Shown: piece by piece, positions 151 through 24,800 of the stretch
Layout of the letters: each line of letters opens with the position of its first letter
How positions within the stretch are numbered: position 1 is the stretch's first letter
Virus record (IMG/VR): IMGVR_UViG_3300021197_001995
Location: 1 to 64,000 of that record
Strand: one strand, 5' to 3'
Origin: a virus
Length of the DNA: 64,000 nucleotides
Program-made: the position numbers and the translations under genes
Notes under the pieces: generated by a model
Databases searched by the model: none
What the model saw: only the letters and a program-made list of their open reading frames with translations
Told to the model about the DNA's origin: nothing

Positions 151-390
151 ATGATTAAAAACTATTTAATAAAGATAATAGAAGAAGAACTTACTGCAGT
201 TTTAGACGAAAAACGCAAGAAAAGAAAAAAGAAGAAAAAGAAAAAATCATCCGGTAAAAAAGATGCATGTTACAATAAAGTAAAGTCTAGATACAAAGTC
301 TGGCCATCAGCATACGCTTCCGGCGCTCTTGTAAAATGCCGAAAAGTAGGCGCAGCAAACTGGGGAAATAAGAGTAAAAAGAAAAAATGA
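151..390 (+). CDS. Small lysine-rich protein with WPSAYASG motif; possible head-packaged protein
   Basis: 79 residues in three parts. Residues 1-20 form an amphipathic acidic helix with LIKIIEEEL and then L18-D19-E20. Residues 21-37 are almost pure Lys/Arg. Residues 45-70 hold the motif YKVWPSAYASGALVKCRK, which recurs from memory in small proteins of marine phages and algal viruses with no assigned role. The N-terminal helix aligns without gaps to that of the next gene and closely to two small proteins at 61069 and 61241. In T4, a short N-terminal peptide cut at L/I-x-E by gp21 targets internal proteins to the prohead; LDE here fits that rule. A DNA-binding internal head protein is therefore a reasonable inference, not a demonstrated function. 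The stop overlaps the next start (ATGA). Confidence 0.75.
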   Translation: MIKNYLIKIIEEELTAVLDEKRKKRKKKKKKKSSGKKDACYNKVKSRYKVWPSAYASGALVKCRKVGAANWGNKSKKKK

Positions 391-731
391 AAAATCAAGA
401 ACTTATAGAAGTCATAGAAGAAGAGCTGTCTATAGTTCTCGAAAAGCGAAAGAAGAAGCGCAAAAAAGCCGGAACAGAATCCGGTAAAGAATCTTCCTTG
501 AGAGATTGGTTCGGAAGAAAAGGTGCTAAAGGAAAAAAGAAAGGTTGGGTTGATTGTAACACTTGCCGTAAAGACAAAAAAACAGGACGCAAAAAATGCA
601 AAGCATGCGGCCGCTCATCCGGAGAAAAGAGATCAAAGTATCCATCATGCCGACCTACTCCTGGAGCGTGTTCAGAAAAAGGCCGCGGCAAGTCATGGGG
701 TAAAAAATCAAAGAAAAGAAAAAAATCTTAA
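387..731 (+). CDS. Small lysine-rich protein with two CxxC pairs (DUF5872-like); possible head-packaged protein
   Basis: 114 residues. Residues 1-19 copy the N-terminal helix of the upstream protein (LIEVIEEEL, then VLEK, so the last residue of the L-x-E cleavage rule is not met at this spot). A basic run follows, then DWFGRKGAKGKKKGWVDC, a CNTC pair, a CKAC pair, and GEKRSKYPSCRPTPGACS with a Lys-rich tail. This C-terminal pattern is familiar from small proteins in phages and large DNA viruses, which I associate with DUF5872 from memory. The two CxxC pairs could bind zinc. It is translationally coupled to the upstream gene by ATGA. A DNA- or RNA-binding structural role is inferred from composition only. 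Confidence 0.75.
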   Translation: MKNQELIEVIEEELSIVLEKRKKKRKKAGTESGKESSLRDWFGRKGAKGKKKGWVDCNTCRKDKKTGRKKCKACGRSSGEKRSKYPSCRPTPGACSEKGRGKSWGKKSKKRKKS

Positions 732-738
732 AAAACTC

Positions 739-767
739 TTGACAACTTTATAACAATAGTTTATACT
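739..767 (+). promoter_or_regulatory. Near-consensus sigma70 promoter for tilS and tRNA
   Basis: TTGACA (739-744), a 17-base spacer, then TATACT (762-767). The expected start point 6-8 bases downstream falls on or next to the tilS ATG at 774, so the transcript would have almost no 5' leader. The same pair with the same spacing occurs at 61640-61668. Confidence 0.75.
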
Positions 768-773
768 TATCTC

Positions 774-1376
774 ATGATTCGTATAATTGGCAAAATTCCA
801 AGTAATGTTGTCGTTGCTTGTTCCGGCGGTCTAGATAGTATGGCTGTCACCCATTTCCTCCAACAGGGAAGGAGAAAAGTCAGACTAGCCTATTTTAATC
901 ATGATACATCTCATTCTCAAGAAGCTCAAGATTTTGTTGAAAGCTATGCCAAAGAACAGCATTTGGATCTTTTCATCGGAAGAGTAAAAGGTACGAAAGG
1001 TAAAAGGTCTATGGAAGAGTTCTGGAGAGACGAAAGGTACAATTTTTTTAAGAGAATTCAAAGTAATTTTATTATTACTTGTCATCACCTAGACGACTGC
1101 GTTGAAACTTGGATAATGTCGTCTTTGCATGGAGAAGGTAAGTTGATTCCTTACCACCGACCCCCAAACCTCCATAGACCATTCTTAATGACGTCTAGGA
1201 GGGTCTTAAAAGACTATGTCCATAGGAAGGGTATCAAATGGATAGAGGACCCCTCAAACGCGAGATTAGAATACATGAGGAATCACGTGAGGCATTCTAT
1301 GATGCCACACATCTTAAAGATAAATCCTGGCATAAGAACCATGATTCGCAAAAAATTAATTGAAACTTATTTATAA
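774..1376 (+). CDS. tilS: Short tRNA(Ile)-lysidine synthetase, catalytic domain only
   Basis: 200 residues of the N-type ATP pyrophosphatase family. SGGLDS (17-22) is the PP-loop that binds ATP. HHLDDCVET (104-112) matches the family HHxDDQxET with Cys in place of Gln. IEDPSN (157-162) and RNHVR (169-173) are the TilS signature that separates it from other PP-loop enzymes. TilS converts C34 of a CAU-anticodon tRNA-Ile to lysidine, so that it reads AUA and is charged with Ile. Bacterial TilS proteins are usually above 300 residues; this one stops after the catalytic domain and lacks the C-terminal domains. A CAT tRNA with features of the substrate lies 24 bases downstream. The ATG at 774 sits where transcription should start, with no Shine-Dalgarno, so translation may be leaderless. 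Confidence 0.9.
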   Translation: MIRIIGKIPSNVVVACSGGLDSMAVTHFLQQGRRKVRLAYFNHDTSHSQEAQDFVESYAKEQHLDLFIGRVKGTKGKRSMEEFWRDERYNFFKRIQSNFIITCHHLDDCVETWIMSSLHGEGKLIPYHRPPNLHRPFLMTSRRVLKDYVHRKGIKWIEDPSNARLEYMRNHVRHSMMPHILKINPGIRTMIRKKLIETYL

Positions 1377-1391
1377 TTTCTGTTATAAATA
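1367..1391. repeat. AT-only inverted repeat at the tilS stop
   Basis: TTATTTATAA, six bases, then TTATAAATAG: nine of ten positions pair. The left arm covers the tilS stop codon and the right arm contains the TATAAATA octamer. It may be coincidental AT-rich pairing or a processing hairpin between the tilS message and the tRNA. Confidence 0.4.
1384..1391 (+). promoter_or_regulatory. T4-type late promoter octamer TATAAATA
   Basis: TATAAATA is the core of T4 late promoters, recognised by gp55-type sigma factors. It lies nine bases before the tRNA 5' end, so a late transcript would start almost exactly at the tRNA and continue into the Hc1-like and ClpP-like genes. A probable gp55-like gene is present at 19098. 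Octamer matches can arise by chance in AT-rich DNA. Confidence 0.5.
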
Positions 1392-1399
1392 GATAATAC

Positions 1400-1473
1400 G
1401 GGCCCATAGCTCAATTGGTTAGAGCATCTGTCTCATAAACAGAAGGTTTCTGGTTCAAGTCCAGGTGGGCCCA
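1400..1473 (+). tRNA. tRNA with CAT anticodon, probably tRNA-Ile2 (lysidine-modified)
   Basis: A complete 74-base cloverleaf. The acceptor is GGGCCCA/TGGGCCC, the D-stem GCTC/GAGC, the anticodon stem TCTGT/ACAGA with loop CTCATAA, the T-stem TCTGG/CCAGG with loop TTCAAGT, and the discriminator A. CCA is not encoded. Anticodon CAT can mean elongator Met, initiator Met or Ile2. The acceptor has C4-G69 and C5-G68, pairs I recall as TilS recognition elements on E. coli tRNA-Ile2 and absent from elongator tRNA-Met. With tilS immediately upstream, Ile2 is favoured. It is not initiator-like, because the 1-72 pair is G-C. Confidence 0.93.
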
Positions 1474-6208: not shown

Positions 6209-6994
6209 ATGACAAACGAAATAAGAAGAATAAGCTTTTCAGAGTTAAAGAACTGGAAAGAGTGTCCGCACCGGCATAAACTAATTTATGTTGATAAACT
6301 CCCATACTTTTCAGGCAACGAGTACACTGCATTCGGAACTGCTATTCACGCAGTTTGCGAAGAGTTGGTTCCTGATAATTCGAGAAATGCTATGGAAATC
6401 TTTGAAACCAGCTTTTTAAAAGAATTGATTCAACTTAAAAGAGATGGTCATGAGTTAAACAAGAGCATGATAACGGACATGAGAAAACAGGCCAAGCCGA
6501 TTTGTGAACAACTGGTGCCTGCAGTAAAAGAATATTTCGGAGAGTTTGACGTCGTATCTGTAGAAGAGCCTCTATTGGAGGACATGTCAGACATAGAATC
6601 TTATGGAAAGAAATTCAAGGGATTCATTGACATGGTAATTAAGACCCCAGATGGCAAACACCACATCATTGATTGGAAGACTTGCTCGTGGGGCTGGGGT
6701 AACGATAAGAAGTCTGCTCCAATGACCACCTATCAACTAACTTACTATAAAAACTACTTTTCAAAAAAGCATAACATTGATCCAAAGGACATAGAAACTT
6801 ACTTTGTACTGTTAAAGAGGACAGCAAAGAAAGAAAACATCGAAACAGTAAAGGTAACTTCAGGCCCAAAGAAAACAACAAATGCCTTAAAAGTTCTACA
6901 GAACGCTGTTATAAATATTGAAAAAGGTATTAGCATCAAAAATCGCCTATCTTGCAAATATTGCAAGTTTCACAACACAGAGCATTGCACATGA
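6209..6994 (+). CDS. Cas4/AddB-like PD-(D/E)XK nuclease with Fe-S cysteines
   Basis: 261 residues. Active-site residues are in RecB-family order: His47 (GTAIHAV), Asp141 (GFIDMVI), Asp155 and Lys157 (IIDWKT), then a QxxxY-type motif YQLTYY (175-180). Cys19 (KECP) with Cys249, Cys252 and Cys260 makes the four-cysteine pattern that holds a 4Fe-4S cluster in Cas4 and AddB. No other CRISPR component is present, so a role in phage recombination or DNA-end processing is more likely than spacer acquisition. A TATAAATA octamer (6910-6917) lies inside its 3' end, upstream of the sugar island. The stop overlaps the first glycosyltransferase (ATGA). Confidence 0.85.
   Translation: MTNEIRRISFSELKNWKECPHRHKLIYVDKLPYFSGNEYTAFGTAIHAVCEELVPDNSRNAMEIFETSFLKELIQLKRDGHELNKSMITDMRKQAKPICEQLVPAVKEYFGEFDVVSVEEPLLEDMSDIESYGKKFKGFIDMVIKTPDGKHHIIDWKTCSWGWGNDKKSAPMTTYQLTYYKNYFSKKHNIDPKDIETYFVLLKRTAKKENIETVKVTSGPKKTTNALKVLQNAVINIEKGISIKNRLSCKYCKFHNTEHCT
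6910..6917 (+). promoter_or_regulatory. Possible late promoter octamer before the sugar island
   Basis: TATAAATA inside the nuclease gene, 74 bases before the first glycosyltransferase ATG. It is well placed to drive the island late, but it is a single octamer match inside coding sequence and may be chance. Confidence 0.25.
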
Positions 6995-8244
6995 CAGAGA
7001 AAAAGAAAATTTTAATAATCGCGGATTCACCATTAGCTCCATCGGGAGTAGGCACTCAAACCAGATACATGATCGAAGGCCTTCTAAAAACTGGAAAGTA
7101 CCAGTTCCTTTGTCTTGCGGGTGCCATCAAACATAACGACTACAGAGTACATGCTGTCTCGCCGTATGAAGAAGATTGGTTAATTAAACCAGTAGATGGT
7201 TATGGAGATCCAAACACGATTAGGGCAGTACTCAGAGATTACAAGCCTGATCTTTTGTGGTTCATGACTGATCCTAGATTTTACGTTTGGCTCTGGGGCG
7301 TAGAGAACGAAGTTAGGGTTAATTGTCCGATGGTGTATTATCACGTTTGGGATAACTACCCCTACCCGATGTACAATGAAGACTTTTATAACTCAAATGA
7401 TGTAGTGTGCACGATAAGCAAGGTAACCGATGACATTGTTCGAACCGTCGCTCCAAATGTAGAATGTGTAAGGATTCCTCATACGGTCGACACAGACATC
7501 TTCAAAAAGATGCCAAACGATTCTGAAGAAGTAAGAAAGACAATTCTTGGAGACTCCGAAGATAAGTTGATTTTCTTTTGGAATAATCGCAATGCCAGGA
7601 GGAAACAGTCGGGTACACTTATTTATTGGTTCAAGGAATTCCTGGACAAGGTTGGCTACGACAAGGCAATGCTCCTTATGCACACTGAACCGAACGATCC
7701 AAACGGCCAGGACTTGCAATCAATTGTTTCGCGATTGGGTCTATCTAAAGAGAACTTGGCGTTTTCAACTACGAAACTCCCACCACCAGGCCTGGCAAAA
7801 ATCTATGCAGCAGTTGATTGTACCATAAACATTTCAGATGCGGAAGGCTTCGGCCTAGCAACTTTGGAGTCTCTAGCTACAGAAACACCGATCATAGTTA
7901 CTATGACCGGTGGACTACAAGAGCAGGTTACAGATGGCAAAGAATGGTTTGGGTACGGCATTGACCCTTCATCAAAGTCTGTAATCGGCTCACAGGATGT
8001 ACCATACATTCACGAGGACAGAATAAATAAGGATGATTTTCTTTTAGCTTTAACTAATTTTTACCAATTAACAAAAGAGCAAAGAGACGATCTCGGCCGA
8101 AAAGGCAGGCAGCACGTGCTAGATAACTATAGCTTGGATCAATATAATCGACTATGGGAAGAAACGATAGAAAGAACAATAGAGCACCATGGTTCTTGGG
8201 AAGATAGAAAAAATTATAAAAGTTGGACAATGGAGGAGTTATGA
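6991..8244 (+). CDS. Glycosyltransferase, GT4/GT-B fold
   Basis: 417 residues. The N-terminal Rossmann half begins ILIIADSPLAPSGVGTQTRY, with the glycine loop that binds the acceptor or donor. The C-terminal half has the GT4 donor-binding block SDAEGFGLATLESLATETP (E-x7-E). It transfers a sugar from a nucleotide donor to a polysaccharide or protein. The start is ATG at 6991, which overlaps the nuclease stop; an upstream in-frame ATG at 6952 would add 13 residues from the nuclease tail and is less likely. It is the first gene of the sugar island. Confidence 0.85.
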   Translation: MTEKKKILIIADSPLAPSGVGTQTRYMIEGLLKTGKYQFLCLAGAIKHNDYRVHAVSPYEEDWLIKPVDGYGDPNTIRAVLRDYKPDLLWFMTDPRFYVWLWGVENEVRVNCPMVYYHVWDNYPYPMYNEDFYNSNDVVCTISKVTDDIVRTVAPNVECVRIPHTVDTDIFKKMPNDSEEVRKTILGDSEDKLIFFWNNRNARRKQSGTLIYWFKEFLDKVGYDKAMLLMHTEPNDPNGQDLQSIVSRLGLSKENLAFSTTKLPPPGLAKIYAAVDCTINISDAEGFGLATLESLATETPIIVTMTGGLQEQVTDGKEWFGYGIDPSSKSVIGSQDVPYIHEDRINKDDFLLALTNFYQLTKEQRDDLGRKGRQHVLDNYSLDQYNRLWEETIERTIEHHGSWEDRKNYKSWTMEEL

Positions 8245-9518
8245 AGAGGATTTTATTAGAAGCACCAATCTTAACCAGATCTGGTTACGGAGAGCACTCT
8301 AGACTAGTATTCAGATCACTTAGCACTTTGGAGGGTGTACTCGTGTGCACCAACCCTTTAAATTGGGGAGCCACTAGTTGGATGACTAAAGATTCCGAAG
8401 AAAGAACTCTGATAGAAGAATCGATCTCGAACTATCAGAGAGTAGTGACAGAGGCGAATCAACAAGGGCAAGGGCCAGCTTTCGATGCACAGGTTTTCAT
8501 CGGTATACCTAACGAATTTGAAAAGAAAGCAAGTTACTCTGTATGCATCACCGCCGGCATAGAAACAGATAGAGTATCTCCATCTTGGCTTGCACAAACT
8601 TACCGCGGCATTGACAAGATTGTAGTACCTTCTGAACATGCTAAATCCGGCTTTATAAAAACTTCATACGCAGTAGAAAACCAGAAAACACAAACATCAA
8701 CAGTGTTAGAATGTAACTGCCCAGTGGAAGTAGTACCCTATCCGGTAAAGAATGTCGAGTCTTCACAACTAGATCTAGACATAACTACTAAATTTAATTT
8801 CCTTTCAGTCGCTCTTCTCGGCGCCCGCAAAAACTTAGAGAACATGATTATATGGTTCCTGGATGAATTTGAGAACGATGATGTGGGTATGATTGTCAAA
8901 ACCGGCCACACCGGCGGATCAATAATTGATAAGTCAAGAACAAGAAAACATCTAAAATCGATAATTGAGAAAAAAGATAGAAAATGTAAAGTATATCTTT
9001 TGCATGGAGACCTGACGGAGTCTGAAGTTCACTCTCTGTATAATCGAGATGACATACATGCCTACGTCAACCTGGCTCATGGAGAAGGTTATGGACTACC
9101 TATCTTCGAAGCGGCATACTCAGGCATGCCTGTACTTGCCACCGACTGGTCCGGACATTTAGACTTTCTAACTGCACCATACAAAGAGGGCGGAAAAGAG
9201 AAAATTAAGAAATTGTTTTGTAAGGTTAATTATGATCTGAGAAAAGTACAAGACCATGCAAAATGGAAAGACATTATTGAAGAAGAAAGCTTTTGGGCCT
9301 ATCCAAGAGAATCTTCGTACAAATCACAGTTAAGGTCTATGATAAAAAATTATGGTATGTACAAGAGTTGGGCCCGCAGCTTAAAAGAGACTCTGTTAGT
9401 AACTCACAGTAGCGATAAAATAATGAACATGATGGTGGAAGCACTGGGCGTCCAACCAGAAAAACCAGAAGTTATTGACTGGATGAACATGCAGCAAGAA
9501 GTCGAAGTTATTGGATGA
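8241..9518 (+). CDS. Glycosyltransferase, GT4/GT-B fold
   Basis: 425 residues. It begins MKRILLEAPILTRSGYGEHS, with a glycine-rich loop like its upstream neighbour. The donor site is HGEGYGLPIFEAAYSGMPV, a standard GT4 E-x7-E block. The ATG at 8241 overlaps the previous stop and follows GGAGG at 8232-8236. The two adjacent GT4 enzymes diverge strongly, so they probably make different linkages in one glycan. Confidence 0.83.
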   Translation: MKRILLEAPILTRSGYGEHSRLVFRSLSTLEGVLVCTNPLNWGATSWMTKDSEERTLIEESISNYQRVVTEANQQGQGPAFDAQVFIGIPNEFEKKASYSVCITAGIETDRVSPSWLAQTYRGIDKIVVPSEHAKSGFIKTSYAVENQKTQTSTVLECNCPVEVVPYPVKNVESSQLDLDITTKFNFLSVALLGARKNLENMIIWFLDEFENDDVGMIVKTGHTGGSIIDKSRTRKHLKSIIEKKDRKCKVYLLHGDLTESEVHSLYNRDDIHAYVNLAHGEGYGLPIFEAAYSGMPVLATDWSGHLDFLTAPYKEGGKEKIKKLFCKVNYDLRKVQDHAKWKDIIEEESFWAYPRESSYKSQLRSMIKNYGMYKSWARSLKETLLVTHSSDKIMNMMVEALGVQPEKPEVIDWMNMQQEVEVIG

Positions 9519-11161
9519 AGGATCTGACATTCGTATCTGACTTCTTCCTGGAAGACGGAGTCCTAGGCGGAGCGGAGCTTTACAACCACAACTTACTACA
9601 GGAATTAAAAACCAAATACAACATCACCAGAGTAAGATCCCACCTCGTCGACGGTACCCTACTAAATGACAGAAAGAACTCTACCTTCATAGTATCAAAT
9701 TTCATGAACCTCACGGGCCCCATGAAAGAAATACTGAAATCACTAGACTACATAATACTAGAACACGACCATAAGTATGTAGCTACAAACGATCCATCTA
9801 AATTCGTAAACATGATAGCTCCACGAAGCCAGGTAATAAACCAAGAGTTTTTTCATAAGGCAAGAGCAGTTTTGTGCCAGAGTAAGATTCACGCAGAGGT
9901 GCTGCAAAAGAATCTTTTGTTAGATAGGGTTGTAAACCTTTCATGTAACTTGTGGTCAAATGAACAGCTTGAACTGCTAAATTCCTTCACAAATAGCGAA
10001 AAAAAGACAGAATATGCCTATTTGCAGTCCGGAAACCGCAACAAAGGCATGCATGCAGCAGTAAAGTTTTGTAAAGATAATCAAATTTCTGCCTATCCAA
10101 TACCTAATTTGCCTCAAAAACAGTTCTTCAAGGAGTTATCTGGGGTCGAAAAGTTGATCTTTTTTCCACAATGGCTTGAATCATTTAACCGTCTGGTCGT
10201 CGAGGCCAAGATTCTTGGTTGTAAGATCGTCACGAACAAGCTTTTGGGCGTTGCTAGCGAGAAATGGTTCCGAGAAACAAAGGCAGAGGACCTAATTGCC
10301 ACACTGAGAGAGAAGAGAAATGGGGTATTGGGTGTGATTACTACGTTTATCGAAGGTAATGAGACGAAAGAGTTGTTTATTGACCCAATAAAAGTACCAA
10401 AAATCACAATTATTACCTCACTTTACAAGGCAAGCGCATACATAGAGAATTTTATGAAAAACATAACGTCTCAAACCGTCTTTGATAAGTGTGAACTGTT
10501 GATTCTCGACGCGAATTCTCCGGACGGGGAATACGAATCGTGTATAAAAGGCTATGAAGACAGGTTTTCAAACATAAAATACACCAAACTACCAACTAGA
10601 GTTGGAGTACAAGAGACTATGAACCTTGGCATAGAGATGTCGACAGGTGAAATACTAACAATTGCAAATGTCGACGACCTGAGGTTACCAACTCAGTTAG
10701 AGGAAATGTCAAAGCTGCTAGCAGTCGATGAAGATTGCGACCTAGTATATTCAGATTGCCATGAGGTAGATCAGATAGTGTCAGATGTGTCTAATTTTAG
10801 AAGTAAAAGAATGTATGAACACTCTAGACTTGAGTTTTCCAAAGAGAACATGATAAAATGTTTACCTGGGCCAATGCCAATGTGGCGCAAATCGATACAT
10901 AAGGATTTGGGAAACTTCGACACCACTCTCAAGTACGCTGCAGATTGGGACATGTGGTTAAGAGCGGTAAGATCAGGATGCAAATTTAAAAAATTTGAAA
11001 AAGCTCTTGGTTTGTATTATAATAACCCGAAAGGTCTTTCAACTTCGCAATCCAACAGTAAAGAAAGATTCGAAGAAGAAAAATTGATCTTCAACCGAAA
11101 CAAGGACATCTTTGGCAAAAGTGTGGCCCAGACCTTTGAAGGATATTTTAATGGAAGCTAA
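9515..11161 (+). CDS. Two-domain glycosyltransferase (GT-B-like plus GT2)
   Basis: 548 residues. Residues 1-290 look like a degenerate GT-B enzyme (GGAELYNHNLL near the N-terminus; FPQWLESFNRLVVEAKILG replaces the donor E-x7-E block). From about residue 295 a GT2/GT-A domain begins (PKITIITSLYKASAYIENFM) with ILDANSPDG and the metal-binding acidic motif NVDDLR near 385. One protein could therefore add two sugars in sequence. ATGA overlaps on the 5' side and a 11-base overlap on the 3' side keep it in the operon. Confidence 0.82.
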   Translation: MKDLTFVSDFFLEDGVLGGAELYNHNLLQELKTKYNITRVRSHLVDGTLLNDRKNSTFIVSNFMNLTGPMKEILKSLDYIILEHDHKYVATNDPSKFVNMIAPRSQVINQEFFHKARAVLCQSKIHAEVLQKNLLLDRVVNLSCNLWSNEQLELLNSFTNSEKKTEYAYLQSGNRNKGMHAAVKFCKDNQISAYPIPNLPQKQFFKELSGVEKLIFFPQWLESFNRLVVEAKILGCKIVTNKLLGVASEKWFRETKAEDLIATLREKRNGVLGVITTFIEGNETKELFIDPIKVPKITIITSLYKASAYIENFMKNITSQTVFDKCELLILDANSPDGEYESCIKGYEDRFSNIKYTKLPTRVGVQETMNLGIEMSTGEILTIANVDDLRLPTQLEEMSKLLAVDEDCDLVYSDCHEVDQIVSDVSNFRSKRMYEHSRLEFSKENMIKCLPGPMPMWRKSIHKDLGNFDTTLKYAADWDMWLRAVRSGCKFKKFEKALGLYYNNPKGLSTSQSNSKERFEEEKLIFNRNKDIFGKSVAQTFEGYFNGS

Positions 11162-12173
11162 AAAATTTTTAATTATTGATTCAAGACCCTATGGATTGTT
11201 TTCAATTTTCTTGCATACTGTTGACAACATAATGTGGGCGAAAGAAAACGATTACGTCCCGGTAGTGCGTTGGGGCCCTGGCCGAACAGATGTTAACTTA
11301 AACAGACCTGGAGCCGAAAAAGCCACACAGCTAGGCAACCCTGTTCATGTTGGAGATTCTCCAAACTTTTCTACTTCAGCGAAAAATTCAGAAAAGTCTC
11401 CCTGTCTGTACGCAGATACATCCAAAGCGTTAAGTCCAACTTATTCATGCTGGGAGCATTTTTTTGAAAAGGTGTCAAGTACAAGTCTCTCGTCAGCCCT
11501 CGCCGGCACTTACGAAGAATCGGACATTTTCCAGGTTGGGTTTCATGACCTCGACCCCGCTACACTGAATGATAAATTCTTAATCTACAATTTACATAGC
11601 TACACACCACTGAACCTGTGGACCCACTGTTATTTAAACAGCGATGGCTTGTTGCAACACAGGAGGAAAGTTGGAGAAATTATTAGAGAGTCAATACACC
11701 CGACAAAACAGATCACGACCATGGTCGAGAGCTTCGCAAGAGAACATTTTTCCAATAACATGATTGGAGTACACATAAGAGGCACAGATAAAGCCTCTGA
11801 GTCGAAGATAGGCCAACGTCCAACGATTACCATAGAAGACTATCTAGCGAAGCTTAGACGCCTTATAAGCAAGAACCCTGAAGCCACTCTGTTTATTGCT
11901 TCTGATAATAACGAATCAATAAAAGTGATTTTTGAAACCTTCCCAAAGAACAAAAAAGTAGTATACACTTGTACTAGGATGTCGACATATGACTCCGTAG
12001 TACCTGTATGCTTGACTGAGGCTGCTAGCGCGCAGCTTGGCCAAGAAGCTTTGATAGATTGCCTATTGTTATCCAAGTGCGATAATTTAGTGTGCACTGA
12101 TTCCAACCTGGCCGCGGCCGCGGCATACTTCAACCCCGAGTCTAAGATAGAATTCGTAAACATAAAGGAATAA
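11151..12173 (+). CDS. Fucosyltransferase-like protein, copy 1
   Basis: 340 residues. IGVHIRGTDK (205-214) matches the GDP-fucose-binding HxRxTD block of NodZ/FUT8-type and O-fucosyltransferases. The N-terminus FLIIDSRPYGLFSIFLHT is nearly identical to the next gene, so the two are tandem paralogues. The ATG at 11151 lies inside the previous gene, with GAAGGA upstream; an earlier in-frame ATG at 11112 lacks support. GDP-mannose 4,6-dehydratase at 17380 makes the precursor of GDP-fucose, which fits. The acceptor is unknown. Confidence 0.72.
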   Translation: MEAKKFLIIDSRPYGLFSIFLHTVDNIMWAKENDYVPVVRWGPGRTDVNLNRPGAEKATQLGNPVHVGDSPNFSTSAKNSEKSPCLYADTSKALSPTYSCWEHFFEKVSSTSLSSALAGTYEESDIFQVGFHDLDPATLNDKFLIYNLHSYTPLNLWTHCYLNSDGLLQHRRKVGEIIRESIHPTKQITTMVESFAREHFSNNMIGVHIRGTDKASESKIGQRPTITIEDYLAKLRRLISKNPEATLFIASDNNESIKVIFETFPKNKKVVYTCTRMSTYDSVVPVCLTEAASAQLGQEALIDCLLLSKCDNLVCTDSNLAAAAAYFNPESKIEFVNIKE

Positions 12174-12174
12174 A

Positions 12175-13221
12175 ATGAATACAGATAATAGGTTTTTAAT
12201 AATAGATTCAAGGCCTTATGGTCTTTTTTCCATTTTTCTTCATACAATAGATAACATTAAATGGGCAAAAGACAACGGGTACATCCCTGTGGTGCGTTGG
12301 GGCCCTGGCCGCCGAGACCCTAACCACGGAAGACCGGGAGTGAGAGAATACTTCGAAACTAGCGACGCGACAGTTTTGGATAAGAACAACTTCTTAAAAG
12401 AATCAACCGCGGACTCATACAATAACACACCTGGGATGAAACACTGCCAAAACCTTTACTGGTCAAAAGAGGGATGGAACGGGTCGACCAATCCGTGGAA
12501 CTACTATTTTGAACCACTTAATCCTCACACCATCTCAGAAGCAGAAGCTTCGGAGAATGACGTAGCAGACATTTTTATGGTCGGCGAACTCGATGATAAT
12601 CTCGAAAACAAGTTTCTAATTAAAAGTGTTTGTACATATGAGCCGCTAGCTTTATGGGACATACTTGGAACTGACCTTGAGCAAGTACACAGGACAGCAG
12701 TATTCGAAGTGATAGACGACAATGTGAAGATAAGAAAAGAAACATCAGCAAAGATAGAAAACTTTTATAAGGAGCATTTTATACAAGGTCAAAGGGTTTT
12801 AGCGGTTCATGTAAGAGGAACAGATAAAAAGATGGAGTACCCTCATAAAGCTCTGCCCATTTCAGCATATTTGAATGCGATAAAATCTTATTTAGATAGT
12901 ACAAAAGAAAAAGTAAGCTTATACATCGCTTCCGACAACAATGAAGCAATAGGTGAGATAATATCAAACTTTAATAAAGAAGTAGAGAAGGTGATAGTGT
13001 ACCCGTCAGTTCGAATGCCCAAATATTTTTCCAAAGATCCAATTTGCTTAACTTCAGCAACTGGCCCGGGCCATGGAGAAGAAGTGTTAATAGAAACAAA
13101 GTTGCTCTCAAGATGCAATCACATTATTTGCACAGATTCGAATGTTGCAGCTGCAGCAATTTACATGAATCCAGAAATGACTGTAGATTACTTAAACCGG
13201 AGTTACGGCAAAAGAGGGTAG
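12175..13221 (+). CDS. Fucosyltransferase-like protein, copy 2
   Basis: 348 residues and a tandem paralogue of the preceding gene. Shared blocks include FLIIDSRPYGLFSIFLHT, VVRWGPGR, VHVRGTDK (211-218, with Arg214 the expected donor-phosphate contact) and CTDSNVAAAA near the end. The central 100 residues diverge more than the ends, which is where acceptor specificity might lie. The ATG is one base after the upstream stop. Confidence 0.72.
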   Translation: MNTDNRFLIIDSRPYGLFSIFLHTIDNIKWAKDNGYIPVVRWGPGRRDPNHGRPGVREYFETSDATVLDKNNFLKESTADSYNNTPGMKHCQNLYWSKEGWNGSTNPWNYYFEPLNPHTISEAEASENDVADIFMVGELDDNLENKFLIKSVCTYEPLALWDILGTDLEQVHRTAVFEVIDDNVKIRKETSAKIENFYKEHFIQGQRVLAVHVRGTDKKMEYPHKALPISAYLNAIKSYLDSTKEKVSLYIASDNNEAIGEIISNFNKEVEKVIVYPSVRMPKYFSKDPICLTSATGPGHGEEVLIETKLLSRCNHIICTDSNVAAAAIYMNPEMTVDYLNRSYGKRG

Positions 13222-13225
13222 CGTA

Positions 13226-13972
13226 GTGAACAAAGAAACAAAAGAAATAAGAAGAATGATCCTTGAGACTTCGCACAACGCCCAAGCAGGCCACATGCCG
13301 TCGGCAATGTCAATCGTAGAAATTGTTTATACAATCTATAAAGATATAAGAGATGAAGACGTTTTCATACTCAGCAAAGGCCATGGCTGTTTGGCATTGT
13401 ATTCGGTATTCGCAAAGATGGGAATAATTCCAAAAGAAGAATTGAATACATTTTGCAAATACGATAGCCGGCTCGGAGGACATCCTCACTCTGGAAAGAT
13501 GAAAGAGATTTATTCTTCTTCTGGCTCCCTTGGCCATGGCCTACCGATGGCTGTAGGTGTTGCATTAGCAAAAAAGATAAGCAATTGCCCGGGCAGAGTG
13601 TTTTGCTTAATCGGCGACGGGGAGTCAAACGAAGGAACAATCTGGGAATCGTTCTTATTAGCTAACAATCTCAATCTAGATAACCTGGTTTGCTTGGTGG
13701 ATGACAACAACTCACAGGCAAGATCTTTACCCATGGAAGCAATCGAAAAAAAGATAGAGCAATTCGGATGGTCTGTAAAAACGTGCAATGGTCATGATCA
13801 AAAAGAAATAAAATTAAAACTGAAGAAACAAGATAGCCCGCTGTGTCTGGTGTGTAAAACAATAAAAGGAAAAGGCTTCCGGTCAATGGAAGACAACATG
13901 TTCGCTTGGCACCATGGCCCCCCAAGCGACGATCAGCTTAAAATTTTGCTAAAGGAGCTTGAAGATGCGTAA
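13226..13972 (+). CDS. Transketolase-like N-terminal (thiamine-diphosphate-binding) subunit
   Basis: 248 residues. It carries the TPP and Mg site GDGESNEGTIWE (130-141) with NN at 161-162, plus AGH (21-23), KGHG (51-54) and LGHG (102-105), which supply catalytic and substrate-contact histidines. The GTG at 13226 follows GAGGG. Its partner half is encoded by the next gene and overlaps by eight bases. In split transketolases the two halves associate to form the active site. In a sugar island the pair might transfer a two-carbon ketol unit to a nucleotide sugar, or supply pentose phosphates; neither is proven. Confidence 0.88.
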   Translation: MNKETKEIRRMILETSHNAQAGHMPSAMSIVEIVYTIYKDIRDEDVFILSKGHGCLALYSVFAKMGIIPKEELNTFCKYDSRLGGHPHSGKMKEIYSSSGSLGHGLPMAVGVALAKKISNCPGRVFCLIGDGESNEGTIWESFLLANNLNLDNLVCLVDDNNSQARSLPMEAIEKKIEQFGWSVKTCNGHDQKEIKLKLKKQDSPLCLVCKTIKGKGFRSMEDNMFAWHHGPPSDDQLKILLKELEDA

Positions 13973-14852
13973 AAGATTTGCAGAAAATCTAATTTCTCTT
14001 GCAGAGAAAGATGATAAGCTTGTGGTTTTAATTGGAGACATAAGCCACTACCTCTTAAAAGAATTTGAAGAAAGGTACCCAGACAGGTTTTACAACACGG
14101 GTATCTGCGAGCAATCTATGGTCAGCATGGCAGCAGGGTTAGCCTCACAGGGCTTCAGACCCGTCGTGCATACCATCGCCCCGTTTTGTGTTGAACGAGC
14201 CTTTGAGCAGATAAAGATAGACTTGTGCTACCAGAACTTAGATGTGACCATAGTATCTGTTGGTTCGTCATTTGATTACGCACACCTAGGATGCACTCAT
14301 CATTGCTATGAAGACATCTCGATTTTAAGATCCTTGCCAAACATCGATTTGTTCATTCCAGGGAACTCTGACGAGTTCACTTCTTTGATGCTTTCTTCTT
14401 GGTCCAACGGCCGACCCAAGTACTTTAAATTGTCAAAAGATGAACACACTCAAGAGACGAAGGTTAAACCTTATGAGTGCCAGGTATTAAACGCGGGGAA
14501 AGCTGCAACCGCAATCTTTGTAACAGGGCATCTACTACAAGAAGTTATGAAGATCCCAAACATAAAAAACTATACAGTAGTTTATAGCCCTACAATCGAA
14601 CCATTATCTAAGAGAGCTCAGGATTTAATCGCAGAAGTAGTGAGAACGCACAGTAAGGTTGTCACTGTTGAGGAGAACTCTACCATCGGAGCTTTTGGTG
14701 ACAAAATAAATGATATAGCGATGAACTACAATCATCCGATTTTAAATAAAAAAATAGGAATACCTAGACTCTTTTGCGACAACTATGGAACTGCTACTGA
14801 ACACCGTCAAGTTTTAGGTCTAACATCATTAGAAATAGAGAAGAAATTATGA
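13965..14852 (+). CDS. Transketolase-like C-terminal (pyrimidine-binding) subunit
   Basis: 295 residues. NTGICEQSMVSMAAGLA holds the conserved Glu49 that activates the TPP aminopyrimidine ring. The second half resembles the transketolase C-terminal domain (VVTVEENSTIGAFGDKI). The ATG at 13965 has AAGGAG upstream inside the previous gene. Both halves keep their key residues, so the enzyme should be active. Length and organisation match the two-gene transketolases found in archaea and in some polysaccharide clusters. Confidence 0.87.
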   Translation: MRKRFAENLISLAEKDDKLVVLIGDISHYLLKEFEERYPDRFYNTGICEQSMVSMAAGLASQGFRPVVHTIAPFCVERAFEQIKIDLCYQNLDVTIVSVGSSFDYAHLGCTHHCYEDISILRSLPNIDLFIPGNSDEFTSLMLSSWSNGRPKYFKLSKDEHTQETKVKPYECQVLNAGKAATAIFVTGHLLQEVMKIPNIKNYTVVYSPTIEPLSKRAQDLIAEVVRTHSKVVTVEENSTIGAFGDKINDIAMNYNHPILNKKIGIPRLFCDNYGTATEHRQVLGLTSLEIEKKL

Positions 14853-15904
14853 AATACAATTACGAAGTGATAAAAGAAGAGACCACTCGCTTAATACATG
14901 CGGATAACTTTCCAGAGTTAAAAGGCAAAACAGTGATCATTACCGGCGCCAACGGCTTGATAGGTGGTTTTCTAGCGGACTTTTTATGTCACTTGAACGA
15001 TGCGCTGGATTACAAGATAAAACTACTTCTGACTTCATACAGTCCCGTAGAGAGAGCAGCCAGAGTGTCTCACTTAACTTCCAGGCCCGACGTGACCTAT
15101 TTTTCTTGGGACTGCTCACTGCCATTTGGGGAGACTCAAATCAAAGATGTCGATATAATAATTTTCTCATCTGGATACGGACAACCATCTAGGTTTTTAG
15201 AGAACAAGATAAAAACAACGATGATAAATATAATAGGAGTGAGATCTCTGATCGACCACTTTAGGAGAGAACAGGAAAACAAAGTTAAGTTTCTGTTCTT
15301 GAGTACCAGCGAAGTGTACGGCAGCCCAGATGAATATCCTACTACTGAAGAGTTCTCTGGAAGAATAGACATGTCCAACAACCGAGCGTGCTACATCATT
15401 TCTAAACTTGCTGGCGAAGTGTTGTGTAAGGAATACAATGATAGTTCCGAAGTAGAAGCTAAATCGGCAAGAGTGGCACTTACCTATGGCCCAGGCACTT
15501 CAAGATCAGACACACGCGTGCTTCAAGAATTTGTCTTCAAAGCCGTCGATGATAAGAAAATAAAGATGTTTGATGAGGGCAAGTCAATCAGAAATTATTT
15601 GTACATAACCGATTGTTGTGAGATTTTGCTAAAAATACTTTTAAGAGGAAGGGAAAGTGTTTATAATGTAGGGGGAGACACCGAGGAAATTAGCATTCAT
15701 AGTCTCGCAGAAACGATCGCCGAAAACTTTAAGGTTCCAGTAGAAAAAGGAACCAGAAAATCATCCGCAACATCAAGCGCCCCAAACAAAGTAGGTCTTT
15801 CGATGGATAGATTTCGAAGTGAATTTCCAAGCTATGGCCCTAACATAGTCGATTTAGAAACAGGGATAAAACAAACATTGAGGTGGTATAAATTACATGA
15901 TTAA
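14849..15904 (+). CDS. NAD-dependent epimerase/dehydratase (extended SDR)
   Basis: 351 residues. ITGANGLIGG (31-40) is the glycine-rich NAD-binding loop. STSEVYG supplies the catalytic Ser/Thr region and CYIISK the Tyr-x3-Lys pair. The downstream VYNVGGD and NYLYITD blocks are typical of nucleotide-sugar 4,6-dehydratases, epimerases and UDP-glucuronate decarboxylases, and the sequence does not separate these. It directly follows the transketolase pair (ATGA overlap), so the two probably work on the same sugar. It could be the epimerase/reductase that completes GDP-fucose synthesis, but it lacks features I would call diagnostic. Confidence 0.82.
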   Translation: MKYNYEVIKEETTRLIHADNFPELKGKTVIITGANGLIGGFLADFLCHLNDALDYKIKLLLTSYSPVERAARVSHLTSRPDVTYFSWDCSLPFGETQIKDVDIIIFSSGYGQPSRFLENKIKTTMINIIGVRSLIDHFRREQENKVKFLFLSTSEVYGSPDEYPTTEEFSGRIDMSNNRACYIISKLAGEVLCKEYNDSSEVEAKSARVALTYGPGTSRSDTRVLQEFVFKAVDDKKIKMFDEGKSIRNYLYITDCCEILLKILLRGRESVYNVGGDTEEISIHSLAETIAENFKVPVEKGTRKSSATSSAPNKVGLSMDRFRSEFPSYGPNIVDLETGIKQTLRWYKLHD

Positions 15905-16808
15905 AAAAATAACAATACAAGATTTCGAAAGCGCTTTTGGAGAAGAATTATCTTCTTTTGTGAAAGAGAAGATCTCCGGATTCATTTTCGAGTATGAAGA
16001 GGTGCAGGAGAGAGAGAAAGATTTTTTAGTACTAAACATTTTGAAAAGCATTTCTGCAGGCCTAAGAAAAGCCGGCCCACACCGAGAGCAAGATTGGATC
16101 CATGGTTGGGCTGAAAACCGAGATGAGGTTAAGCAGTCAATAAAACCGAAGTACTTCGGTAAGCTTCCCCATGTACGATGGAAAGGAAAGTTCATAAAAC
16201 CCATATCGGAAGACTTTGAGTACAACATGGCACAGGTTCTGCAATTTTGGCTATTCGAGAAGTACATGTCAGGGTTTACTTCTATCTACGAGTTTGGCTG
16301 CGGCACAGCTCACAATCTGCTTAGAGCAGAAGAAGTCAGTCCTGCAGCCAAACTGTACGGACTAGATTGGGCAACCTCATCTCAGGAGACGATTAGAGAA
16401 ATAAATAAATTACACGGCAAAGACATCCAAGGTCACAACTTTAACTTTTTTGAAATAGATCACAATCTTAAACTTGATGAATCCTCAGCCGTCTATACGT
16501 TTGCAGCATTGGAGCAGGTGGGAGAAGACCATACTGATTTCATAGATTATCTAATTGAGCAAAACCCATCTATTTGTTTGCACGTGGAACCAATTGCAGA
16601 GCTGCTGGATCCCGAATCTAATCTCTTAGATCATCTAAGTGTTGAATACTTCCGCGAAAGGAATTATTTAAGAAACTTTTATAACCATTTAAAAGATCTA
16701 GAGACCAGTGGTAAGATAGAAATAATTAAAGCACAAAGAAGCCAAATTGGTAGCTTTTATGTAGATGGATACTCAATCGTAGCCTGGAGGCCAAAATGCC
16801 AGAACTAA
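15897..16808 (+). CDS. Class I SAM-dependent methyltransferase
   Basis: 303 residues. The SAM-binding motif I is YEFGCGTAHN (131-140), followed by LYGLDWA as motif II. The N-terminal 125 residues are helical and unrelated to standard methyltransferase cores. Its place inside the sugar island suggests O-methylation of a sugar or of a lipid-linked intermediate. It overlaps both neighbours. Confidence 0.75.
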   Translation: MIKKITIQDFESAFGEELSSFVKEKISGFIFEYEEVQEREKDFLVLNILKSISAGLRKAGPHREQDWIHGWAENRDEVKQSIKPKYFGKLPHVRWKGKFIKPISEDFEYNMAQVLQFWLFEKYMSGFTSIYEFGCGTAHNLLRAEEVSPAAKLYGLDWATSSQETIREINKLHGKDIQGHNFNFFEIDHNLKLDESSAVYTFAALEQVGEDHTDFIDYLIEQNPSICLHVEPIAELLDPESNLLDHLSVEYFRERNYLRNFYNHLKDLETSGKIEIIKAQRSQIGSFYVDGYSIVAWRPKCQN

Positions 16809-17224
16809 TTTATTCAAAAGAAGACCCTGATCTTTTATTGTTAGCAATCAACCGCAAATCAGAAATAACATCTTCCAGGGTTGACGTTTGCCCATCAGAT
16901 GAATATATTCAAATCTGCGCAAAATCTATGCCAAAAGGAATGACGTTCAAGCCACACAAGCACAACAAACTAGAAAGAATAACCGACTACACTCAGGAAG
17001 CTTGGATAATCTTAGAAGGATCCGTTCACGCAAATTTCTGGGACGTTAATGATCAACCCATACACGAAACAGTCCTAAACTCAGGCGACTGCGCGATTGT
17101 CTTTCGAGCCGGCCACAGTTTTGAGGTCCTAGAAGAAGAAACAATTTTATACGAGGTAAAGTCTGGTCCCTATTACGGAGTAGAAAGAGACAAATCGTTT
17201 TTGGATGGTGACAATGAAGTATGA
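16796..17224 (+). CDS. Cupin-fold protein, possible sugar-nucleotide isomerase or sensor
   Basis: 142 residues. FKPHKHNKLER followed by EAWIILEGSVHANFWD and LNSGDCAIVFRAGHSFEVLEE gives the two cupin motifs with metal-ligand-type His and Glu residues. Similar small cupins (WbuC/FdtA-like) sit in O-antigen clusters, some acting as ketoisomerases on dTDP sugars. A specific reaction cannot be assigned. The start overlaps the methyltransferase end by 13 bases. Confidence 0.7.
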   Translation: MPELIYSKEDPDLLLLAINRKSEITSSRVDVCPSDEYIQICAKSMPKGMTFKPHKHNKLERITDYTQEAWIILEGSVHANFWDVNDQPIHETVLNSGDCAIVFRAGHSFEVLEEETILYEVKSGPYYGVERDKSFLDGDNEV

Positions 17225-17387
17225 GCTGTGGGACATGGTGGCATACGGCCATGACGAGCCGATGGTGCCATTTACGCTAATGGCCACAAGTGACAACTAT
17301 GAAGAAATTTATTTCAGATTCAACAAGATGGTAAAAGATAAACCATGTGTAATTTTTTTAAAAGAAAAGGAAAAAAACAATGACTAA
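17205..17387 (+). CDS. Small uncharacterised protein, 60 aa
   Basis: It overlaps the cupin stop by 20 bases and the gmd start by eight. The sequence YELWDMVAYGHDEPMVPFTL, then aromatic residues and a Lys-rich end, belongs to no family I know. The start may be 17205 or the ATG at 17214. The tight packing supports a real gene. Confidence 0.5.
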   Translation: MVTMKYELWDMVAYGHDEPMVPFTLMATSDNYEEIYFRFNKMVKDKPCVIFLKEKEKNND

Positions 17388-18363
17388 AAAGAGAGCATTA
17401 ATTACCGGCTTAGGCGGCCAAGACGGTAGTTATCTAGCAGAACACTTGCTAGAAAAAGGCTACGAAGTGCACGGAATGATCAGAAGACACTCCGTCGCAG
17501 AAAACCAAGACAGCCGAATAAGTAAAATTACCGATCAAATTGAGACATATTACGGAGACCTCTTAGATGTGCCTTCTTTGGTCAGGATTTTCAAGGAGTC
17601 TCAACCAGATGAGATTTATAACCTTGGAGCGATGTCACACGTAAGAATAAGTTTTGATGTGCCATCTTTCACAATACAAACTAACGGACTAGGGGTGCTA
17701 AACATGTTGGAGACATATAGAACGATGTCCCCAGAAGCAAGGTTTTATCAAGCTAGTTCATCAGAGATGTTTGGGAACTCTGTTGATGACGACGGGATAC
17801 AAAGATTAACAACCCCTATGACACCAGTGAGTCCTTACGGGTGCGCAAAACTGCTAGCCTACAACCTGGTGCGACATTATAGGCATGCCTACAAGTTGCA
17901 CGCGTGCAATGGTATTTTGTTTAATCACGAGTCACCAAGACGAGGTACCAATTTTGTAACTAATAAAGTGGTCAAACGCGCTGTAGAAATTAAGCTGGGA
18001 CTAAAAGATAAGCTAGAACTTGGAAACATGGATTCATTCAGAGATTGGGGCCATTCTAAGGACTATGTTAGGGCAATGAATTTAATAGTAAATCACGAAA
18101 CACCGGATGAATTTATTGTGTCGACAGGGAGAACACACTCAGTCAGGGATCTTTGCGATGTGGTTTTCAAGAAATTGGACTTGGATTATAAAAAATACGT
18201 GACACAAAATCCAAAATTTATGAGACCCGAAGAGCTTAAATATCTTAAGGGAGACTCCTCTAAAGCGCGAGATGTTTTAGGCTGGGTACCAGAATATACT
18301 TTTGAGTCAATGCTCGAAGAAATGATAGAAAATTGGAAGGAGAAATTAAGTAATGAAACTTAG
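17380..18363 (+). CDS. gmd: GDP-mannose 4,6-dehydratase
   Basis: 327 residues, close to bacterial Gmd length. It starts ALITGLGGQDGSYLAEHLLE, the characteristic GxxGQDGSYL NADP loop, and continues with MIRRHS, NLGAMSHVRISFD, SSSEMFG, Tyr-x3-Lys in YGCAKLLAY, FNHESPRRG and FRDWGHSKDYV. All are Gmd hallmarks. It converts GDP-mannose to GDP-4-keto-6-deoxymannose, the precursor of GDP-fucose, GDP-rhamnose and GDP-perosamine. The first catalytic block reads SSSEMFG as in active enzymes. It is the last gene of the island, with GGA upstream of the ATG. Confidence 0.95.
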   Translation: MTKKRALITGLGGQDGSYLAEHLLEKGYEVHGMIRRHSVAENQDSRISKITDQIETYYGDLLDVPSLVRIFKESQPDEIYNLGAMSHVRISFDVPSFTIQTNGLGVLNMLETYRTMSPEARFYQASSSEMFGNSVDDDGIQRLTTPMTPVSPYGCAKLLAYNLVRHYRHAYKLHACNGILFNHESPRRGTNFVTNKVVKRAVEIKLGLKDKLELGNMDSFRDWGHSKDYVRAMNLIVNHETPDEFIVSTGRTHSVRDLCDVVFKKLDLDYKKYVTQNPKFMRPEELKYLKGDSSKARDVLGWVPEYTFESMLEEMIENWKEKLSNET

Positions 18364-21867: not shown

Positions 21868-24800
21868 ATGGCTTTTAAAATAGAAATTCAACATAACTCC
21901 TCGACTCTGTCCTTTGTGCCCAGATCAGTCGGCGATGTAGGGCGCGACATTTTAGCTGTTAAAGTGGCACTGGGGCTGATAAAAGAAATAAGCAACGGTA
22001 GAGTAATTTCAGATAACTCAAACAATGAAGGTTATGAGTTCAGTCCAGAAATTCCACTAGACCGGCAGAATTGGTTTGATTGTCAAACCGGCCTCGGATC
22101 TGACCTAAAGACAGCGTGCTTGTTTGACTTGCCCTTGCAGTCCGCTATCACGACTTTCCAGATCGAAAATAGGTTTTTAATTACAAATTATTTGTTTGAG
22201 AAATACTCAACAAGAAAAATAATACAAGAGACTGTTGGTTTCCAGAGCATGCCTTCATCGGAATATCAAGCAATTGTAGAATCCGAGGTCTCTTTGTCTA
22301 TCCTTTCATACGATGAAGAGTTTGGATCCCTGGGAGAAGGGACCCTCGCAGTGCTGCATGGCTGGAGGCCACAAACCATTATTTCAAACGATGGTTATGT
22401 ACACGATAGAAATTTATTCAATTCATCAGATAAAATCGTTGACATTGTCCCTGAAGCCATCTGGCGCTTGGCTACCCGCTCGACGCGCTCTAACTTGGCC
22501 GACCGCGGCTACATTTTGCGCACCAACCCATCGAATCCCGAGTCTCGCATCGCCACGCGGCAAAACGACGCGTCTAGACTTGAAGCTTACATCGCCCAAG
22601 CACCCTCATATAAGGACTGGATAAGAGACATATCTGGAATCCGCTTCGATGAACTGATACCATACCGCGGCATAGATTATAAGGTTTCCTGGGAAAACAC
22701 AAGCATGTTAATTTCACCTTCCAGAATAGTGGTAAACCAGACAGAAGAATTTGGAGACGTCGCGCTTTTAGGGCCCACTGAATTGAGAGAAAGAATGAAC
22801 AATTTTTTCTATCCAGATCCGTTTTCTACGTCCAAGCCTTTTATTATTGACGAAAATAGAATAGGTATTTTTTACGAGACAAACTTTGAATTATCCTCAG
22901 CGGGCCCCCTGCCTACACACCAGGACGCAGAGGTGATCGAAATAGAAGATCTGGCGCTCAAGGAGGTATTGGACTTCTATAACAAGCCGAAGGTTTGGAA
23001 TTTCATCTTAGACGACGCCACATTTTTGTCGACATATGAGATAAATCATGACGAATATTCGCCAGACCATAATGGCTCATTTCCTCTTGAAATTTCAACA
23101 GAAAGGGTCCGATCATCGAAGCTTTACAAAGCATACGAATTGCAAGAGCAATTAATTCAAAATAGAATAAAAAGATTGGAAGATTCTCTGGACACTGATC
23201 AGTCAGGGCCAAGTCACCCAAGATCGTTTGCATCTCGGGAAGAATTTGAACAATCAATTTCAACCCTTATTACCAACCACAAAGCATCCATGGATGCTTT
23301 GAGATCAAAGATGCAACGCGCACTAGCAGAGGGCGTCTTTAGGAAGCAGGACTTTTGGGTCTTAACAACGCAAGATATGCTGGATAAGATGCAGGAAGGT
23401 TCGGCTCAATCGTGGCGCCAAGTATCCAGCGAAACGACGGAACCATTAATAAAATTCATAGAGTACCGTACTCCATCCTTGCGCCCGGGACACAAATATA
23501 GGGCCCTCCTAGAAATAAATCGACACAAGCTTGATCTAATAGTATACGGAGACGATCCGGAACAAGGAACAGAACTGGTCACAATGCAACAGAACCTTGC
23601 AGCAGAAGCTCGCACTTCAAACGTTAAGGTATGCGAAAATTCAGACCCAGAACAAGCTAGGAGAACTTACGAAGAGTATAAAGTACATGCTCAGAAAAAA
23701 CGAAGAGAATTCGCCCGGGCCCTCAGGGAGAAAGTACAGGAGTCTCTAGACGTTACAACTGTGGACATGGGACCCATGGGTCCATTCAATCTCAATAACG
23801 CATTCCCGGGCTTATATGGTCTTAGCGGCATCACAGACGACTATGAATATACCAGCAAAGCCCTTAAATTACTAGTCGATACTGGGTCCCCGATCTTAGA
23901 ATTAGATTTTTGGGGCGACTATGGAGTCGACACTTCCGCAGAATCACTTAACGCAATGTTGAACGATTTAAATCTTGATGAAGATAACGCTTCACCTGCA
24001 GAGGTTGAGGCAAATTTTAAAAAAGGTTTTGGTCAGATTTTGATGCCGTGGGAGGAATTTAAAAAGAGAATTCAAACAGCGTCTGAAGATCTATCAGAAG
24101 CAGCGCGCACTATAGAGAAAGAAGCAATAAAATTCATAAGAGGGAGCAACTTCAAGCCAAAAAACGAGGCTCAGCTTCTAAAAAGGGTCGTTTCTCAAAT
24201 GGAGGAACTGCTAAACAATCCCAAAGTATTGGACTCAAATGACATGCCTATCGATAAAATTCTAGAGAAGCATGCAAAAGAAAGAGTGATGATTAGGATA
24301 GGATTCAAAACATCCGTCACGACCGAAGACCTTGGACCCAAAAACGGAAAAGATATCACGAGCATCGCCTTGTTAGTTCAAGAGACAGGGTTTTTCGGTG
24401 ATCTTGGCCAAGGCCGCCCATTCGCCGAATTAGAAGTATCGTTTGACGCGTTCGATCAAGATGCGAAAGCACAACACGCTGAGCTTCAAGCTTTTGAATC
24501 ACTGTCCAGGCCTAGAACTGTAAATTATATTAGCAATGTTGGAAAGATGACAAATCCGTTTCCTTCAACTTTTAAAGGGTTTGTTAAGTCATTCTGGGAT
24601 GATAAAAGGATGTCTTGTTCTCAGTTGGGCATAGATTCTGAAAAGGGCATAGCACTTTCACTAGTAGGTAGCTACACTTCTGGTATAGCTGTAGACTTGG
24701 AAAAAGATGATGAAGGCTTGACAGAAGCGTTTAAAGATTGGGCCACGAAAAACTTTAAAGACCCAGCAATGAAGTGGGTTGACCAATCTGCTAAAAATTA

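What the first reader, a model, noticed from the sequence alone, without database searches (positions are those of the whole stretch)
739..1473. A self-contained phage lysidine system: short TilS beside a CAU tRNA
A TilS catalytic domain with intact PP-loop and TilS signature lies 24 bases before a complete tRNA of anticodon CAT. The acceptor pairs C4-G69 and C5-G68 agree with what I recall of TilS substrate determinants. The simplest reading is that the phage carries its own AUA-decoding tRNA and the enzyme that creates its identity, which would help where the host reads AUA poorly. The enzyme keeps only the catalytic domain, so it may recognise its tRNA in a reduced way. The many ATA codons in the window are compatible with this.
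Basis: partly seen in the sequence, partly recalled or inferred. Interest (0 to 1): 0.8.

Follow-up and report, generated by a model that had tools for sequence, protein, structure and literature searches.

The report
Phage lysidine enzyme paired with tRNA-Ile2
A large uncultured phage carries, as one small transcription unit, a tRNA for the isoleucine codon AUA and a stripped-down version of the bacterial enzyme that would make that tRNA read AUA as isoleucine; the pair is kept together across a whole lineage of related phages.

Summary
Window 774-1376 encodes a 200-aa TilS catalytic domain (NCBIfam TilS_N, 127 bits, cut-off 93.6); an intact CAU tRNA lies at 1400-1473. A classifier built here from 46 bacterial CAU tRNAs (46/46 correct, leave-one-out) puts it with Ile2 by 52 bits over elongator Met; its best E. 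coli match is annotated tRNA-Ile. All 26 closest viral loci carry the pair in the same order, 25 with a gap of 10-26 nt. All 84 viral relatives examined are 189-214 aa without C-terminal domains, while the 80 nearest bacterial TilS are 288-607 aa; the viral proteins form one clade with invariant catalytic residues. New here: a near-consensus sigma-70 promoter ends 6 nt before the tilS start codon, so the mRNA should be leaderless; this spacing recurs in 10 of 20 non-redundant loci (0.02 expected). Phage TilS (PA5oct/MIJ3, RsoM2USA) and a lysidine-bearing phage tRNA were already reported, so this is a new variant of a known kind: a catalytic-domain-only viral TilS linked to its presumed substrate. 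That the enzyme works without tRNA-binding domains, and that the host reads AUA poorly, is untested.

The parts
739..767 (+). sigma-70-type promoter TTGACA-17-TATACT (11 of 12); -10 box ends 6 nt before the tilS ATG, so a leaderless mRNA is expected
   Evidence: same spacing in L005, L007, L010-L013, L016, L017, L022
774..1376 (+). tilS, 200 aa, catalytic (PP-loop) domain only
822..839 (+). PP-loop SGGLDS (residues 17-22)
   Evidence: S17, G18, G19, D21, S22 invariant
1377..1399 (+). 23-base spacer between tilS stop and tRNA; only a weak 9/12 promoter-like match overlaps it
1400..1473 (+). tRNA with anticodon CAU, Ile2 type (C4-G69, C5-G68, U12-A23, A73); no encoded CCA
1434..1436 (+). anticodon CAU; C1434 is position 34, the predicted lysidine site

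Best explanation
A phage AUA-decoding module. Host-type sigma-70 RNA polymerase starts at or next to the A of the tilS start codon (inferred from the promoter) and makes one transcript carrying a leaderless tilS reading frame and, 23 nt beyond its stop codon, a tRNA-Ile2 (arrangement shown; co-transcription inferred). RNases P and Z cut the tRNA out and the host adds CCA and t6A37 (inferred). The 200-aa enzyme uses ATP and lysine to turn C34 into lysidine (inferred from invariant catalytic residues and fold). The tRNA, which while unmodified would accept Met, then becomes an Ile acceptor that reads AUA. With the phage's other four tRNAs, all for A-ending codons (AAA, GGA, CCA, AGA), it supplements translation of phage genes. 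The enzyme lacks the C-terminal domains with which bacterial TilS contacts the tRNA stems, so it probably recognises mostly the anticodon arm.
For: TilS_N above curated cut-off. Asp21, Arg88, His104, Asp108, Glu111, Arg169, Asn170 and Arg173 invariant in 84 viral sequences and in 79-80 of 80 bacterial ones. AlphaFold model pLDDT 95, best PDB match Aquifex TilS with TM 0.83 over the query. tRNA scores Ile2 71.2, Met 19.3, fMet 1.7 bits, and still Ile2 by 16 bits with the acceptor stem left out. Best E. coli match is tRNA-Ile between mug and nfeF, anticodon CAU. All 26 closest viral loci keep the tRNA downstream of tilS, 25 with a gap of 10-26 nt, although neighbouring genes are inserted or lost on both sides. 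Five tRNAs in the genome, all for A-ending codons; AUA 20 per 1000 codons. Published identity elements for TilS (C4-G69, C5-G68; PMC12514573) and IleRS (A73, C4-G69, U12-A23; PMC9976931) are present; the minor IleRS pair C29-G41 is U-A here.
Against: No activity is shown. Characterised TilS enzymes use one or two C-terminal domains to contact tRNA (PMC12514573), so a catalytic domain alone may be inactive or need a partner. The window tRNA keeps the determinants of full-length enzymes, so host TilS could do the work, as suggested for vibriophage tRNA-CAU (PMC13191261). Major capsid and DNA polymerase genes avoid AUA, so AUA supply does not obviously serve the most expressed genes. Host unknown.
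Confidence: 0.82

Rival explanations
1. Host TilS modifies the phage tRNA-Ile2; the phage protein is an accelerator or backup that matters only when host TilS is limiting, for example after host shut-off.
For: The window tRNA keeps C4-G69 and C5-G68, which full-length TilS reads (PMC12514573). A vibriophage tRNA-CAU carries lysidine, apparently made by the host (PMC13191261).
Against: The gene is kept intact in every relative with all catalytic residues invariant and stays next to the tRNA; this fits a backup role too, so it only argues against an idle gene.
Confidence: 0.3
2. The phage TilS mainly serves the host's own tRNA-Ile2 pool during infection, and the adjacent tRNA is a coincidental neighbour.
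For: In PA5oct and several distant relatives tilS is not next to a CAU tRNA.
Against: Adjacency in 25 of the 26 closest loci despite gene turnover around it, and adjacent CAU tRNAs in further clades (L032, L064, L077, L080). Unlinked cases examined often carry an Ile2-like tRNA elsewhere (PA5oct second 'Met' tRNA).
Confidence: 0.1
3. The tRNA is an elongator tRNA-Met and the PP-loop protein modifies something else (a TtcA- or TtuA-like enzyme).
For: ARAGORN calls it tRNA-Met (by anticodon alone), and TtuA is among the next structural matches.
Against: 52-bit margin for Ile2 over Met; TilS_N 127 bits against TtcA 23; Aquifex TilS is the best structure.
Confidence: 0.03

Closest known systems
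Bacterial TilS, type II (Aquifex aeolicus, PDB 1wy5/2e21/2e89)
   Same: Catalytic domain fold (TM 0.83) and catalytic residues; best sequence match among solved structures.
   Different: Aquifex TilS is 317 aa with a C-terminal domain; the phage protein stops after the catalytic domain (200 aa).
Bacterial TilS, type I (E. coli 1ni5, Geobacillus 3a2k)
   Same: PP-loop, HHxDDxxET-type and RN..R motifs.
   Different: Phage protein lacks both CTD1 and CTD2; CTD2 contacts the acceptor stem in type I (PMC12514573).
TilS of Pseudomonas jumbo phages PA5oct / MIJ3 (PMC6892783)
   Same: Same viral clade, about 203 aa, 36-37% identical.
   Different: Unlinked: the CAU tRNAs lie about 7-10 kb away; its role was left unknown by the authors.
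TilS ORF84 of Ralstonia jumbo phage RsoM2USA (PMC8504454)
   Same: Phage-encoded lysidine synthetase annotation.
   Different: 349 aa by the paper, not a catalytic-domain-only protein; not among the matches.
Vibriophage tRNA-CAU carrying lysidine (reviewed in PMC13191261)
   Same: A phage tRNA-CAU lysidinylated in infected cells.
   Different: Modification attributed to host enzymes; here the phage carries the enzyme gene beside the tRNA.

Membership tests
TilS (tRNA-Ile lysidine synthetase) | N-terminal PP-loop domain above curated model cut-off | tested here: met
   TIGR02432 127.4 bits, cut-off 93.6
TilS (tRNA-Ile lysidine synthetase) | Catalytic residues aligned with Aquifex Asp36, Arg113, Asp137, Glu140, Arg205 (roles from memory) | tested here: met
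   Asp21, Arg88, Asp108, Glu111, Arg173 invariant in 84 viral and 80 bacterial sequences
TilS type I / type II | One (type II) or two (type I) C-terminal tRNA-binding domains | tested here: not met
   No C-terminal TilS domain in any of 48 viral members; lengths 189-214 aa in 84 loci against 288-607 in 80 bacteria and open frames of 283 aa or more for full-profile matches in a sample of a reduced-genome bacterial phylum. Hence filed as a catalytic-domain-only viral variant, not as type I or II
TilS (tRNA-Ile lysidine synthetase) | Lysidine formation on tRNA-Ile2 | not testable with these tools
   needs an in vitro assay or mass spectrometry
tRNA-Ile2 (CAU) | Intact cloverleaf with CAU anticodon | tested here: met
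   73.3 bits against RF00005
tRNA-Ile2 (CAU) | Groups with Ile2, not with elongator or initiator Met | tested here: met
   71.2 / 19.3 / 1.7 bits; 88% identical at compared positions to the nearest Ile2, 68% to the nearest Met
tRNA-Ile2 (CAU) | C4-G69 and C5-G68 | tested here: met
   present; 13 of 15 bacterial Ile2 and 0 of 20 Met references have C4C5
tRNA-Ile2 (CAU) | Charged with isoleucine, reads AUA | not testable with these tools
   needs experiment

The most novel reading that the evidence does not exclude
A separate virus-only class of TilS that has dropped all tRNA-binding domains and recognises its substrate through the catalytic domain, a virus-specific C-terminal tail (invariant N184, G186 and K193, plus W84 and H43) and the anticodon arm, with specificity helped by making enzyme and tRNA from one leaderless transcript. 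In distant relatives the acceptor pairs 4-69 and 5-68 are no longer fixed, as expected if this enzyme does not read them.
Probability: 0.35. Interest if true: 0.7.

Novelty: new variant of a known kind. Interest (0 to 1): 0.52.

Why it matters
Characterised TilS enzymes are described as using C-terminal domains to contact tRNA-Ile2 and tell it from tRNA-Met. A conserved viral family that keeps only the 200-aa catalytic domain, next to its likely substrate, makes the question of the minimal lysidine synthetase directly testable. It would also show phages carrying not just a tRNA but the enzyme that fixes its amino-acid identity, and it offers a small enzyme-tRNA pair for work on AUA decoding.

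Tried and rejected
Elongator or initiator Met: rejected by classification. TtcA/TtuA/QueC identity: far weaker scores. A chance neighbour: rejected by conservation with gene turnover around the pair. Truncated pseudogene: rejected, because all 84 viral proteins have about the same length and invariant catalytic residues. A reduced TilS taken from a reduced-genome bacterium: none seen among the 80 nearest bacterial sequences or in full-profile matches of a phylum sample centred on a Saccharibacteria genome, and the viral sequences form one clade. Host identification: capsid relatives are Flavobacterium, Microcystis, Rhodothermus and cyanobacterial phages at 31-52% identity and the polymerase points elsewhere, so no host is claimed; the canonical TTGACA/TATAAT promoters argue weakly against a Bacteroidetes host (general knowledge). 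Two family scans failed on my own wrong coordinates and were repeated. A paper search for 'type III TilS' gave only unrelated papers.

Full report
What is there. ORF 774-1376 on the + strand encodes 200 aa. It matches NCBIfam TIGR02432 (TilS N-terminal domain) at 127.4 bits against a cut-off of 93.6, over residues 12-178, almost the whole protein; TtcA reaches only 23 bits. The tRNA at 1400-1473 has anticodon CAU and scores 73.3 bits in Rfam. The window is part of a 159,041-base virus record with portal, capsid, sheath and polymerase genes.

Which CAU tRNA. Bacterial CAU tRNAs were gathered by pattern from bacterial genomes, from the flanks of bacterial tilS loci and from annotated E. coli records. 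Unsupervised clustering of 46 distinct sequences gave three groups, each holding one annotated E. coli type. Position profiles of these groups classify 46/46 correctly when each is left out. The window tRNA scores 71.2 (Ile2), 19.3 (Met), 1.7 (fMet); without the acceptor stem it still favours Ile2 by 16 bits. C4-C5 occurs in 13 of 15 Ile2 and in none of 20 Met references. The labels rest on the clustering plus E. coli annotation, not on independent charging data.

The enzyme family. A search of IMG/VR with a family alignment kept the best 80 of 471 viral loci. With the PA5oct and huge-phage copies and the window, all 84 proteins read here are 189-214 aa (one runs off its contig). The 80 nearest bacterial TilS are 288-607 aa, and full-profile matches in a sample of a reduced-genome bacterial phylum have open frames of 283 aa or more. 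The bacterial sample was drawn with motifs of the viral alignment, so a catalytic-domain-only bacterial TilS elsewhere is not excluded. A tree puts 46 viral sequences on one side of a branch with 99% SH-aLRT support (quick method). Residues aligned with the Aquifex catalytic residues are invariant (their roles are from memory). The AlphaFold model is confident (pLDDT 95) and closest to Aquifex TilS. Residues invariant in the viruses but not in bacteria are H43, W84, P126, N184, G186 and K193.

Linkage. In the 26 closest loci the CAU tRNA follows tilS on the same strand with a gap of 10-26 nt, except L009, where a 184-aa ORF lies between. About seven of these 26 are near-duplicates. The loci belong to one viral lineage: a ClpP-like protease and PhoH follow in nearly all, so they are not independent events, but genes come and go on either side while the pair stays. 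In more distant members the tRNA is adjacent in several clades and elsewhere in the genome in others. PA5oct has three CAU tRNAs about 7-10 kb from tilS; its second scores as Ile2 (54.5 against 34.4).

Transcription. TTGACA-17-TATACT lies at 739-767, ending 6 nt before the ATG. A promoter of at least 10/12 at exactly this spacing occurs in 10 of 20 non-redundant loci including the window; shuffled upstream sequences give 0.024 on average, at most 2. The phage has 29 sites of at least 11/12 on the + strand against 3 on the - strand and 0-2 in simulated sequence, so many are probably real promoters, and most of the others have a leader. No Shine-Dalgarno-like motif precedes tilS in the window, while 50 of 86 ATG-first genes have one. 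A leaderless start is therefore expected but not shown. Relatives without the promoter may rely on upstream genes.

Codon use. AUA is 930 of 2773 Ile codons (33.5%, 20 per 1000), slightly below what the base composition of four-fold sites predicts (0.338 against 0.388 on the genes tested). The major capsid (2/32) and DNA polymerase (5/67) genes avoid it; the largest ORFs at 21868, 36235 and 48473 use it at 39-49%. All five tRNAs of the genome read A-ending codons. This fits codon supplementation but does not show need.

What is known. TilS in jumbo phages MIJ3/PA5oct was reported in 2019 with unknown role (PMC6892783) and a larger one in RsoM2USA in 2021 (PMC8504454). A vibriophage tRNA-CAU carries lysidine (PMC13191261). 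TilS types I and II are defined by C-terminal domains, and C4-G69/C5-G68 are the E. coli identity elements (PMC12514573). I found no report of a catalytic-domain-only viral TilS clade, of its conserved linkage to tRNA-Ile2, or of the leaderless unit; the held library is open-access only.

Verdict.

Noticed in passing
window 739-767; L005, L007, L010-L013, L016, L017, L022 upstream of tilS: Near-consensus sigma-70 promoter with the -10 box ending exactly 6 nt before the start codon: a conserved leaderless-mRNA geometry in phages that otherwise often use Shine-Dalgarno sites.
   Followed up: yes
G000 whole record, + strand (29 sites): 29 promoter matches of at least 11/12 on the coding strand against 3 on the other; a few others also sit 4-6 nt before a start codon (sites at 115396, 123583, 129772, 136129).
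   Followed up: partly
L006:3384-3693 and L007:494-804: tmRNA genes with tag peptides ANDDIEIFEDFALAA and ANDDVENFEDFALAA a few kb upstream of tilS in two relatives; none found in the window's own record.
   Followed up: no
window 21868-31974 and 36235-47613: Two giant ORFs (3368 and 3792 aa) with high AUA use (39-45% of Ile codons), in contrast to capsid and polymerase genes.
   Followed up: partly
window 6952-18363: Run of glycosyltransferase-like genes and a nucleotide-sugar epimerase (one gene matches the FUT8-type fucosyltransferase domain) between PhoH and the giant ORFs.
   Followed up: no
L064: A relative with about 25 tRNA genes within 10 kb around tilS, including three CAU tRNAs.
   Followed up: no
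L176 (genome G005, in which Saccharibacteria locus L115 lies): Bacterial Ile2-type CAU tRNA with G4-C69, G5-C68 instead of C4-G69, C5-G68, in a genome with a short TilS of about 288 aa.
   Followed up: no
window 151-731: Two lysine-rich small ORFs upstream of tilS, conserved in several relatives but at varying distance.
   Followed up: no
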